64,000 bases of DNA from Aneurinibacillus soli. Lineage in GTDB: Bacteria > Bacillota > Bacilli > Aneurinibacillales > Aneurinibacillaceae. The notes below the pieces were generated by a model. The model was given only the letters and a program-made list of their open reading frames with translations. It had not been told where the DNA came from and searched no databases. Both the position numbers and the translations under genes were made by a program. The stretch is from assembly GCF_002355375.1 (NCBI RefSeq), contig NZ_AP017312.1, positions 1,505,001-1,569,000 on the forward strand, read 5' to 3'. Positions 8,535-17,963 of the stretch are shown piece after piece (the first letter of the stretch is position 1; each line of letters opens with the position of its first letter).

Positions 8535-8731
8535 ATATTGGCGGATGAGCGCAGAGGGAGAGAACGCGTGGTAGCACGTGTCGCCGAAGGAGCAAGGATG
8601 ACCTTACAATCTCTCAGGCAAAAGGACCTCTGCAGGACGCGGCTCTGGAGAGAGTCTGCATAAGGCAGGCCACCAAAGGGGAAACTGGCTTCTATAGGCG
8701 CTGGGTAACTCTCAGGTACAAGGGACAGAGA
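8535..8731 (+). ncRNA. Tandem glycine riboswitch (two aptamers)
   Basis: Leader of gcvT. Aptamer 1 shows GAGGGAGAG ... CGCCGAAGGAGCAAGG ... AATCTCTCAGGCAAAAGGAC; aptamer 2 shows CTGGAGAGA ... CCACCAAAGGGGAAA ... AACTCTCAGGTACAAGGGAC. These are the conserved glycine-riboswitch cores. The 3' part of aptamer 2 overlaps the 5' arm of the downstream terminator, fitting the known glycine-ON transcriptional control of gcv operons. An AT-rich -10-like TATGAT lies at 8513. Confidence 0.97.
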
Positions 8732-8764
8732 TGGGGAAAATTCCCTATCTCTGTCCTTTTTTAT
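8723..8764 (+). terminator. Riboswitch-controlled intrinsic terminator
   Basis: Perfect arms GGACAGAGAT and ATCTCTGTCC separated by a GGGGAAAATTCCC-type inner stem, then TTTTTTA. Its 5' arm is shared with the end of glycine aptamer 2, so ligand binding would block it. Confidence 0.93.
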
Positions 8765-14863: not shown

Positions 14864-15541
14864 ATGGAGGCAGTAACTGAATCACAAGGAAAAATGAAGC
14901 TTGAAGGTTTAAGCGAGAAAATTTTCCTTGATCGGTATGCTCTGAAAGATACAGATCCGGACCACATTCAGGAAGGCGATACGGTTCTTGTTCTAACACA
15001 TGATGATCCGAAGTTTCCGAAGAAAGAAGTCGGGATTGTAACAAAACGGACAGGCAGTGAACTCGAGGTTGAATTGCAGAACGGTGAGACGGTGATATCG
15101 AGTGCTGAGAAAGCGCTTCGCACACTGGAGAAAACACCAGAAGAGATGTGGGATCGTCTGGCGAAGACGATTGCATCTGTTGAGACAACGCCTGAGAAGC
15201 AGCAGGAATGGCAAGAGAAGTTCCGTGGTCTGCTTGAGGACTGGAAGCTTGTACCAGGTGGGCGAATTGCGGCCGGTGCCGGTGCGAATGATGAATTGAC
15301 GCTGTATAACTGCTACGTAATTCCTTCTCCGCATGACAGCCGGGGCGGCATTATGGATACGCTCGGTCAGATGACGGAGATTATGTCTCGAGGCGGCGGG
15401 GTTGGAATTAACCTTTCGAGTCTTCGCCCGCGCCGTGCGCAAGTCAAAGGCGTGAACGGATCGTCAAGCGGTTCCGTTTCATGGGGTGGATTGTTTAGTC
15501 ATACGACCGGATTAATTGAGCAAGGTGGCTCAAGACGTGGT
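14864..15541 (+). CDS. nrdJ: Class II (B12-dependent) ribonucleotide reductase, exon 1
   Basis: First 226 codons of NrdJ, ending ...LIEQGGSRRG. Conserved NrdJ blocks are present: WDRLAKTIASVE, LVPGGRIAAGAG, LYNCYVIPSPHDSRGGIMDTLGQMTEIMSRGGGVGINLSSLRPR, with the Cys of the redox-active pair in LYNCYV. Reading past 15541 gives KTR and a stop, while the expected continuation ALMLMMNDWHPD resumes at 16068. The interruption is a group I intron. GGAGGGTG precedes the ATG. Spliced protein: 857 aa. Confidence 0.93.
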
Positions 15542-16067
15542 AAAACAAGGTAAATTAATCAAGTGTGCCACGTAACCCTGTGAACTGCTGGGAACTCTTT
15601 CGTTTGCATGTGTTACTTCAAAGATTAAGCATAATTGTGATTAAAATTTGAGGTGAATCACATGAAACAATATGATGCAAAAAGTGAACAGATTTGTGCA
15701 ATCTGCGAAGAAATATTTTCTCATAATAAGCAGGGAAGATGACATTTTGCACAGATTGAAGGAAGTAAAAAGCACAATTGCATCGTATTTGTCGCGTTAG
15801 CTACAACGTAACTGGAAACGGTAGGCGTGAATGCTTGAAAATAACACGGCGGTAAAGACAATCAGCAGCCAAGCCCCTACGTCTTTTTACGAAAAAAGAT
15901 ATGGGGAAGGTCCAACGACCATCAAAAGCACACACGAATGTGTGGAAGCGAGTAGAGTAGGATTCAAGCGAATCCGAAGTGCAGGGGCGCCGCAGAACGG
16001 CGTAAGATATGGTCTCATCTCTAGGGTGACTTAGAGAGTCGGAGTAGCGATCCGACGTAAGGAATTG
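15542..16067 (+). ncRNA. Group I self-splicing intron in nrdJ
   Basis: 526 nt. P1: exon end ACGTGGT (15535-15541) pairs with the internal guide GCCACGT (15567-15573), giving the canonical U-G at the 5' splice site. P10: exon-2 start GCACTT (16068-16073) pairs with the adjacent AAGTGT (15561-15566). The intron ends in G (16067). Core: Q-like AATCAGCAGCCAAGCC (15860-15875), R-like GTCCAACGACCA (15910-15921), S-like AAGATATGGTCT (16004-16015). P7 pairs GACCA with TGGTC, a covariant of the common GACTA/TAGTC. Hairpins between R and S and a P9-type hairpin (GTCGGA/TCCGAC) suggest subgroup IA. Confidence 0.95.
15662..15742 (+). pseudogene. HNH homing-endonuclease remnant inside the intron
   Basis: An ATG with a good GAGGTGA site 5 bases upstream opens a 26-codon frame, MKQYDAKSEQICAICEEIFSHNKQGR, ending in TGA. 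The CxxC and the context ICAICEEIFSHN resemble the zinc/HNH N-terminus of intron-encoded HNH endonucleases. The frame after the TGA is still readable for a short stretch and then stops again. The catalytic H-N-H part is absent, so the intron probably lost its own mobility. Family call is by pattern only. Confidence 0.6.
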
Positions 16068-17963
16068 GCACTTATGTTAATGATGAACGACTGGCATCCT
16101 GACCTGCTGGAGTTCATTACCGTTAAACAAAATATGGGCATGATTACGAATGCGAATCTATCTGTTTGCATCAGCAACGGCTTCATGAAAGCCGTAAAAG
16201 AAGACCTCGACTGGGAGCTGAAATTCCCAGATACGACAGACCCGGAATACGATGAAGTATGGGACGGAAACTTTGATAAATGGCTGTCGCTCGGCAAAGA
16301 AGTGCGCGTATACAAAACGGTTCGCGCACGCGACGTGTGGCACATGCTTATTGAATCGGCATGGAAATCGGCTGAACCGGGTGTTGTATTCATGGAATAC
16401 TACAACCAGATGTCGAACAGCTGGTATTTCAATCCGATTATTTGTACGAATCCGTGTGGGGAGCAAGGACTTCCAGGATGGGGCGTATGTAACCTGTCCG
16501 CTATTAATCTATCAAAATTCGTTACAGACGGTGAAGTCGATTGGGATAGCCTGTCTACAGCTGTCCGTTATTCTGTTCGTTTCCTCGATAACGTGGTCGA
16601 CGCAACACCGTACCATTTCGAAGAAAACAAAGCCAATCAGAAAAACGAGCGCCGCGTAGGTCTGGGTACGATGGGCCTTGCGGAAATGATGATCGATCTG
16701 AAAATCCGTTACGGCAGCCCAGAATCGCTTGAATTCCTGGACAAGCTGTATGCATTTATCGCTCGTGAATCATACCTTGCATCTTCCGAAATTGCGGCGG
16801 AAAAAGGCAGCTTCCCGGCGTTTATTGCAGATAAATTCCTGGAGAGCGGCTTCATGAAGCAGTTCGATGATGAGCTGCGCGAAACGATCCGTACACAAGG
16901 GATGCGCAACGTAACCGTTCTGACACAGGCTCCTACCGGGTCAACTGGAACCATGGTCGGCACGAGTACAGGAATTGAGCCTTTCTATGCATTTGAATAC
17001 TTCCGTCAGAGCCGCCTTGGCTTCGACAAGCAGTACGTGCCGATCGCGAAGCAATGGATGGAAGAGAATGATTCAGACACACTGCCGGATTACTTCGTAA
17101 GTGCGATGGACCTCCAAGCAGAAGATCACGTACGCGTACAGGGTGCAATCCAGAAATGGGTAGACAGCTCAATCAGTAAAACAGCGAACGCTCCAGCTGA
17201 CTTCACGGTAGAAGAAACAAAAGCGCTGTACGAACTCGCCTTTGATCTTGGCTGCAAAGGGGTTACCATTTACCGTGATGGTAGCCGCGACGTGCAAGTT
17301 CTGACAACGAAAAAGGACGAGAAAGACAGCAAGAAAGATCCGGCAAAAGCCGAAAAAATCGCGCAGTCAACGGACCTTGACGAAGCAGCTCCGACGAAAG
17401 ATTACCGTCGCCGCCCGCTTCGCCTCAAAGGCGCGACATACAAAATGAAAACACCGCTTGGCAAAGCGTATATTACGGTGAATGAAGCAGATGGCGCTCC
17501 GTTTGAAGTAATTGTAAATGTAGGAAAAGCGGGTAGTGACGTATTTGCGATGTCCGAAGCACTGGGTCGCGTATCGACACTGTTCCTTCGCTTCGGAGAA
17601 CTGCCGGATGGCAACAAAGCCCGCCTGCTGATTAAGCATCTCAAAGGTATCGGTGGCTCCGGCGCAGTCGGCTTCGGTGCTAAGCGTGTCGATTCGATTC
17701 CAGATGCGGTAGCCAAAGCGATTGAATTCTATCTCGATGGAGATGATGACAGCGCACCGGTTGCTTCGGCAAGTGAAGCCACTTATACAGATGCGTCTGC
17801 GCTAGCAACTCCGGCAGCTAATACGCACAAGCATGACCGTGATGAAGACGGGGATGTGTACCGTGAAGGACTTGATTTGTGTCCAGAATGCGGTGCGGCA
17901 GCTCTCGTTGCGGAAGAGGGTTGCAAACATTGTGAAGCATGCGGCTACTCTCGTTGTTCATAA
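16068..17963 (+). CDS. nrdJ: Class II (B12-dependent) ribonucleotide reductase, exon 2
   Basis: Codons 227-857 plus stop. Starts ALMLMMNDWHPDLLEFITVKQNMGMITNANLSV, directly continuing exon 1 in frame after splicing. Shows the thiyl/active-site region NPCGEQGLPGWGVCNLSAINLS, the substrate-binding loop QAPTGSTGTMVGTSTGIEPFYAFEY, and a C-terminal zinc ribbon CPECG ... CKHCEACGYSRC with the shuttle cysteines. Reduces ribonucleotides to deoxyribonucleotides with adenosylcobalamin. A TTG at 16065 could start a truncated product, but it belongs to the intron end and there is no ribosome site for it. Confidence 0.95.
   Translation, partial: ALMLMMNDWHPDLLEFITVKQNMGMITNANLSVCISNGFMKAVKEDLDWELKFPDTTDPEYDEVWDGNFDKWLSLGKEVRVYKTVRARDVWHMLIESAWKSAEPGVVFMEYYNQMSNSWYFNPIICTNPCGEQGLPGWGVCNLSAINLSKFVTDGEVDWDSLSTAVRYSVRFLDNVVDATPYHFEENKANQKNERRVGLGTMGLAEMMIDLKIRYGSPESLEFLDKLYAFIARESYLASSEIAAEKGSFPAFIADKFLESGFMKQFDDELRETIRTQGMRNVTVLTQAPTGSTGTMVGTSTGIEPFYAFEYFRQSRLGFDKQYVPIAKQWMEENDSDTLPDYFVSAMDLQAEDHVRVQGAIQKWVDSSISKTANAPADFTVEETKALYELAFDLGCKGVTIYRDGSRDVQVLTTKKDEKDSKKDPAKAEKIAQSTDLDEAAPTKDYRRRPLRLKGATYKMKTPLGKAYITVNEADGAPFEVIVNVGKAGSDVFAMSEALGRVSTLFLRFGELPDGNKARLLIKHLKGIGGSGAVGFGAKRVDSIPDAVAKAIEFYLDGDDDSAPVASASEATYTDASALATPAANTHKHDRDEDGDVYREGLDLCPECGAAALVAEEGCKHCEACGYSRCS

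What the first reader, a model, noticed from the sequence alone, without database searches (positions are those of the whole stretch)
15542..16067. Group I intron splits a class II ribonucleotide reductase gene at SRRG|ALM
Both splice sites are fixed by base pairing visible in the sequence: P1 with terminal U-G, P10 immediately adjacent in the guide, 3'-terminal G, and P7 GACCA/TGGTC, which covaries relative to the usual GACTA/TAGTC. Splicing restores R-G-A-L in frame. Group I introns are known in phage and bacterial nrdE/nrdF; an insertion in a B12-dependent nrdJ at this conserved site is less familiar to me and makes dNTP supply depend on RNA splicing.
Basis: partly seen in the sequence, partly recalled or inferred. 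Interest (0 to 1): 0.72.

Follow-up and report, generated by a model that had tools for sequence, protein, structure and literature searches.

The report
Group I intron in nrdJ gene
[quoted passage not shown] it is a new example of a known kind, with the twist that the cell's only other gene of this sort is interrupted the same way.

Summary
Confirmed. Window 15542-16067 is a group I intron, probably subgroup IA1/IA2, inserted after codon 226 (SRRG|ALM) of a class II (B12-dependent) ribonucleotide reductase gene. Rfam RF00028 scores 57 bits, E 1.2e-13. P1 (7 bp, terminal U-G), P10 (6 bp), P3-P9.1 and the 3'-terminal G are all present. Joining the exons gives an intact 857-aa NrdJ. Five species carry the same intron at the same codon; 15 of 68 pairs change on both sides with pairing kept (0-3 when partners are slid), including P1, where the exon half changes by synonymous arginine codons. 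The sister species has an intronless gene (96% identical protein). The window intron has lost its homing-endonuclease gene: relatives have an intact 294-310 aa DUF559/Vsr-type ORF, of which only the two ends remain here. nrdJ is a repeated target in Bacilli (codons 224, 226, 358, 517). This genome's other RNR gene, nrdE, also has a group I intron (GIY-YIG), and no class III gene was found, so every de novo dNTP route appears to need splicing. Splicing is inferred, not observed. Precedent: the Nostoc punctiforme RIR group I intron. New member of a known kind.

The parts
14864..15541 (+). nrdJ exon 1 (codons 1-226, ends SRRG)
   Evidence: matches intact NrdJ of relatives
15542..16067 (+). group I intron, 526 nt
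   Evidence: RF00028 57.0 bits E 1.2e-13; covariation
16068..17963 (+). nrdJ exon 2 (ALMLMM... to stop; cysteine-rich C-terminal tail)
   Evidence: spliced protein TIGR02504 NrdJ_Z 573.5 bits, cut-off 399.95
15535..15541 (+). P1 5' strand ACGTGGT (exon), last U pairs with G
15551..15553 (+). in-frame stop (4th intron codon) that ends exon-1 translation before the ribozyme core
   Evidence: early in-frame stop in all ten nrdJ introns compared (codons 1-4 in nine, 13 in one)
15561..15566 (+). P10 guide AAGTGT (pairs with 16068-16073 GCACTT)
   Evidence: 5-6 of 6 pairs in five species, with compensating changes
15567..15573 (+). P1 guide (IGS) GCCACGT
15576..15582 (+). P3 5' strand (3' strand 15980-15986)
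   Evidence: two pairs changed on both sides
15586..15591 (+). P4 5' strand TGCTGG (3' strand 15862-15867)
15596..15600 (+). P5 5' strand TCTTT (3' strand 15854-15858); the L5 insertion holds the endonuclease remnant
15662..15735 (+). remnant of the N-terminus of a DUF559/Vsr-type homing endonuclease gene (MKQYDAKSEQICAICEEIFSHNKQG)
   Evidence: alignment to the introns of G007/G002 with intact ORFs
15733..15800 (+). remnant of the C-terminus of the same gene in another frame (DDILHRLKEVKSTIASYLSR*); joint at GGG, about 737-740 nt lost
15874..15906 (+). P6a hairpin (CCCC 15874-15877 / GGGG 15903-15906)
15917..15922 (+). P7 5' strand GACCAT (guanosine-binding helix; 3' strand 16009-16014)
15931..15944 (+). 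P7.1 hairpin
   Evidence: three pairs changed on both sides
15960..15975 (+). P7.2 hairpin
   Evidence: two pairs changed on both sides
15988..16002 (+). P8 hairpin
   Evidence: one pair changed on both sides
16019..16036 (+). P9 hairpin with GUGA tetraloop
   Evidence: two pairs changed on both sides
16038..16056 (+). P9.1 hairpin
   Evidence: three pairs changed on both sides
16067..16067 (+). 3'-terminal intron G (omega G)
   Evidence: G in every nrdJ intron compared

Best explanation
A group I ribozyme intron lies in nrdJ after codon 226. Shown: the complete core fold, P1 and P10 guides that fix both splice sites, an in-frame stop 12 nt into the intron, exons under purifying selection, empty sites in relatives, and the two ends of a deleted homing-endonuclease gene. 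Inferred: in the transcript an exogenous guanosine bound in P7 attacks after U15541, the freed exon-1 3'-OH attacks after G16067, the exons join in frame and NrdJ is made. The ancestral intron spread by endonuclease homing into intronless nrdJ alleles; this copy has lost its endonuclease gene by an internal deletion of about 740 nt and can now only be inherited or moved by a helper.
For: RF00028 57 bits, E 1.2e-13. Splicing gives an 857-aa NrdJ, TIGR02504 over cut-off. Same-codon introns in G001, G002, G007 (family) and G043 (same order); 15 of 68 pairs changed on both sides, 98.5% of cells paired, 0 of 500 shuffles. The exon half of P1 covaries with the guide through synonymous Arg codons (CGT, AGA); P10 covaries with the guide. 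dN 0.027, dS 0.56 against the sister species, low dN in both exons. Empty sites in five genomes. Endonuclease remnant with a clean deletion joint. The endonuclease family was found in 6 of 399 Bacilli genomes, each time in nrdJ at SRRG|A, including a NrdJ only about 39-45% identical.
Against: No RNA data: splicing is not observed here. The endonuclease gene is dead, so loss of ribozyme activity as well cannot be excluded from sequence alone; however all core helices are intact and P1 and P10 are at full length.
Confidence: 0.95

Rival explanations
1. The intron is dead and nrdJ is broken; the cell lives on NrdEF.
For: The endonuclease gene is degenerate; a class I nrdE/nrdF operon exists.
Against: Both exons are under strong purifying selection (dN/dS about 0.05); every core helix and P1/P10 is kept with compensating changes; nrdE is itself interrupted by a group I intron, so NrdEF would need splicing too.
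Confidence: 0.02
2. Gene in pieces: both exons are translated separately and the two NrdJ halves assemble, as in the endonuclease-split NrdA of phage Aeh1.
For: AAGGA at 16059-16063 lies about 10 nt before ATG 16074, so exon 2 could be translated alone; Aeh1 is a precedent (PMC3653736).
Against: The AAGGA is not conserved in the four other same-site introns (and, for G043), while P10 and the ribozyme core are.
Confidence: 0.02
3. Splicing is a regulatory checkpoint (for example tied to translation, temperature or guanosine) rather than a neutral burden.
For: Early in-frame stop in all ten nrdJ introns compared; both RNR genes carry group I introns in this genome; a temperature-dependent flagellin intron is cited in PMC4853749.
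Against: Patchy presence (the sister species has neither intron), homing endonucleases and their decay are what a selfish element predicts.
Confidence: 0.08

Closest known systems
[quoted passage not shown] 2007, J Bacteriol 189:2150; not held, read through PMC12702839 and PMC1995217)
   Same: Group I intron in a chromosomal RNR gene of a bacterium; cyanobacterial RNR is B12-dependent in Anabaena (Gleason and Olszewski 2002, cited in PMC12702839).
   Different: That intron is associated with an insertion-sequence element (title of the paper); this one carries an endonuclease remnant. Whether the insertion codon is the same could not be checked.
nrdE/nrdF introns of Bacillus anthracis, phage SPbeta and phage Twort (PMC1995217, PMC3984707)
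   Same: Group I introns with homing endonucleases in RNR genes.
   Different: Class I genes, mostly phage or prophage; GIY-YIG or HNH endonucleases.
EDxHD homing endonucleases (I-Bth0305I; PMC3943268) and VSR-type intron ORFs of Bastillevirinae (PMC11878797)
   Same: Intact relatives of this intron encode a DUF559/Vsr-like C-terminal nuclease domain.
   Different: Only weak similarity (Vsr below its Pfam cut-off); EDxHD catalytic residues were not tested; the window copy is deleted.

Membership tests
Group I intron (RF00028) | Covariance-model match over the whole core | tested here: met
   57.0 bits, gathering 50, model 1-253
Group I intron (RF00028) | P1 with U-G at the 5' splice site and P10 next to it | tested here: met
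   7 bp P1, 6 bp P10, covarying in five species
Group I intron (RF00028) | P3-P8/P4-P6 core with guanosine-binding P7 | tested here: met
Group I intron (RF00028) | Terminal G and frame-restoring exon joint | tested here: met
   G16067; 857-aa ORF
Group I intron (RF00028) | Guanosine-dependent self-splicing | not testable with these tools
   needs RNA
Subgroup IA1/IA2 | P7.1 and P7.2 hairpins between the P7 5' strand and the P3 3' strand | tested here: met
   15931-15944 and 15960-15975, both with compensating changes; IA1 versus IA2 not separated; the criterion itself is from general knowledge
Mobile (homing) group I intron | Intact homing-endonuclease gene | tested here: not met
   only the two ends remain in the window copy; intact in G002, G007, G043
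Class II RNR (NrdJ) | Match to a NrdJ equivalog model | tested here: met
   TIGR02504 573.5 bits, cut-off 399.95; B12 dependence itself not tested
IStron | Group I intron joined to an IS605-type transposase | tested here: not met
   no such ORF in 15542-16067; one IStron-like element lies elsewhere in the genome

The most novel reading that the evidence does not exclude
In this lineage all de novo dNTP synthesis passes through ribozyme splicing and that step limits or regulates DNA synthesis: with B12 present a cobalamin riboswitch would shut nrdEF and leave only intron-split nrdJ, and without B12 only intron-split nrdE would work; in a relative (G007) nrdJ, with two group I introns, is the only RNR gene found.
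Probability: 0.12. Interest if true: 0.6.

Novelty: new member of a known kind. Interest (0 to 1): 0.36.

Why it matters
It adds a well-resolved homing-cycle series (intact endonuclease, two independent deletions, empty sites) at one codon of an essential bacterial chromosomal gene, outside phages. It shows that class II RNR genes of Bacilli are repeated targets of group I introns with site-specific endonucleases, as class I genes of phages are. In this genome both RNR routes carry introns, which makes the cost or regulatory use of splicing directly testable by growth with and without B12.

Tried and rejected
The 64-kb Rfam gathering scan missed the intron; the permissive scan of 1 kb found it. 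Meng 2007 is not held, so the Nostoc insertion codon could not be compared. Co-conversion of exon flanks: the 31 nt around the splice site differ from the sister species at 13 positions, against 10.6% elsewhere (Fisher p 8e-6), and match G007 at 28, but another 31-nt window of the gene reaches 13 too, so this is suggestive only. A longer direct repeat at the endonuclease deletion was considered and rejected; only a 3-bp overlap (GGG) is shared. No relative of the endonuclease was confirmed in viral contigs, and phage records hold only distant ones (22-35% identity among those listed), so a phage vector was not shown. Phage DNA matches to the intron cover only part of the core. MAFFT misplaced the 3' end of G043 in A1, so P10 was counted by hand. 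The automatic guide finder picked wrong guides for G003/G004 and G125; those rows are not used.

Full report
OBSERVATION. Exon 1 (14864-15541) ends after codon 226 with TCAAGACGTGGT, the insert is 15542-16067 (526 nt, stops in every frame), and exon 2 starts at 16068 with GCACTTATG. Joined, they give an 857-aa protein that passes the NCBI model TIGR02504 for adenosylcobalamin-dependent RNR (573.5 bits, cut-off 399.95). Infernal matches RF00028 over 15521-16036 at 57.0 bits, E 1.2e-13. The fast 64-kb scan missed it and the whole-genome search scored it 48.2; I attribute this to the large loop insertion (inference).

ANATOMY. P1 is ACGTGGT/GCCACGT with the terminal U-G; directly 5' of the guide lies the P10 guide (AAGTGT, with exon GCACTT); P3, P4, P5, P6, P7 (GACCAT/ATGGTC), P7.1, P7.2, P8, P9 (GUGA loop) and P9.1 follow, and the last intron base is G. 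P7.1/P7.2 place it with the IA1/IA2 introns (general knowledge of the subgroups). An in-frame TAA ends 12 nt into the intron and stops exon-1 translation before the core; all ten nrdJ introns compared have an in-frame stop early in the intron, within the first four codons in nine, a feature that the review PMC3984707 links to intron folding and splicing.

RELATIVES. The window lies in a 4.117-Mb single-contig genome. Contig lengths tie family members G005, G008 and G009 to Aneurinibacillus records, so the host is most likely an Aneurinibacillus (inference). All 11 genomes of the family have nrdJ; it is uninterrupted in G005, G006, G008, G009 and G010, and G006 is 96% identical in protein. Introns at codon 226 occur in the window, G001 (475 nt), G002 (1262 nt), G007 (1257 nt) and G043 of another family of the order (1261 nt); all splice in frame. 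On their alignment, with the loop ORFs cut out, 98.5% of 340 pair cells are standard and 15 of 68 pairs change on both sides; slid structures give 33-45% and 0-3. The structure was drawn with these sequences in view, which favours it, but the size of the gap and the compensating changes in P1, P3, P7.1, P7.2, P8, P9 and P9.1 leave little doubt. In P1 the exon side changes between CGT and AGA, both arginine, and the guide follows; in P10 the guide follows exon changes as well.

ENDONUCLEASE LOSS. G007, G002 and G043 encode, in L5, an ORF of 294-310 aa with a cysteine-rich N-terminus and a DUF559/Vsr-like C-terminal domain. The window keeps only its first 25 or so and last 20 or so codons, in different frames, joined at a shared GGG; 737-740 nt are missing. 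G001 lost the ORF with different breakpoints. So the window intron is a homing-dead derivative. A profile of this endonuclease found it in 6 of 399 Bacilli genomes at E<=1e-25, always in nrdJ at SRRG|A, three times in a NrdJ only about 39-45% identical to this one: a site-specific nrdJ specialist.

OTHER nrdJ INTRONS. Codon 224 (SR|RG) holds related introns in G003 (no intact ORF) and G004 (LAGLIDADG); codon 358 (NPCG|EQ) in G001 and G002 (ORF with weak TnsA/HsdR-like similarity in G002); codon 517 (APTG|ST) in G007 (HNH). In a sample of 399 Bacilli, 10 of about 64 close NrdJ genes (54 intact) are interrupted at codons 224-226 (counted by hand).

DEPENDENCE ON SPLICING. The genome has one other RNR large-subunit gene, nrdE, with nrdF, at 1.926 Mb. 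It too is split by a 1200-nt group I intron with a GIY-YIG/NUMOD3 endonuclease; splicing restores GGGIGV-YIGKVRARG, matching intronless nrdE of four congeners. The RF00028 score there is weak (24 bits) because of the ORF; the P1, P10 and P7 (GACTAT/ATAGTC) pairings read from the sequence support it. No NrdD was found in any of the 11 genomes. A cobalamin riboswitch precedes nrdE (117.5 bits). So both de novo routes appear to need splicing; in G007 nrdJ, with two introns, was the only RNR gene found (this assembly is in about 130 contigs with 8% contamination).

VERDICT. The finding is real and correctly read. Splicing itself is inferred. A class II precedent exists in Nostoc punctiforme (PMC12702839, PMC1995217) and RNR genes are a known refuge of such introns (PMC3653736, PMC2795772), so this is a new member of a known kind; the dependence of both RNR genes and the nrdJ-specialist endonuclease raise the interest somewhat.

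Noticed in passing
L050:1726-2925 (G000:C1, about 1.9262-1.9274 Mb): nrdE of the same genome is split by a 1200-nt group I intron with a GIY-YIG/NUMOD3 homing endonuclease; intronless in congeners.
   Followed up: yes
L050:602-793: Cobalamin riboswitch (117.5 bits) directly upstream of the class I nrdEF operon, in a genome with a B12-dependent NrdJ.
   Followed up: partly
L051:1860-3779 (G000:C1, about 2.513 Mb): IStron-like element: group I intron (86.6 bits) followed by an IS605-type TnpB ORF and a RAGATH-18 RNA.
   Followed up: partly
L042, L043, L133, L134, L135 (codon 224 of nrdJ): A neighbouring insertion site six bases upstream (SR|RG) holds a related intron; LAGLIDADG ORF identified in L043.
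   Followed up: partly
L040:2025-2331, L041:2839-4076, L044:3365-4535: Further nrdJ introns at NPCG|EQ (codon 358) and APTG|ST (codon 517), with different endonuclease types.
   Followed up: partly
L145, L146 (codon 358 equivalent): A divergent Bacilli NrdJ carries both the 226-site and the 358-site insertions, the latter with an ORF resembling that of G002.
   Followed up: partly
window 8545-8738: Tandem glycine riboswitch aptamers (69.1 and 38.3 bits).
   Followed up: no
window 16059-16074: AAGGA about 10 nt before an ATG of exon 2; not conserved in the other same-site introns.
   Followed up: yes
L137:1544-1553: NrdJ of G058 is in two overlapping frames around residue 415, perhaps a frameshift or sequencing error.
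   Followed up: no
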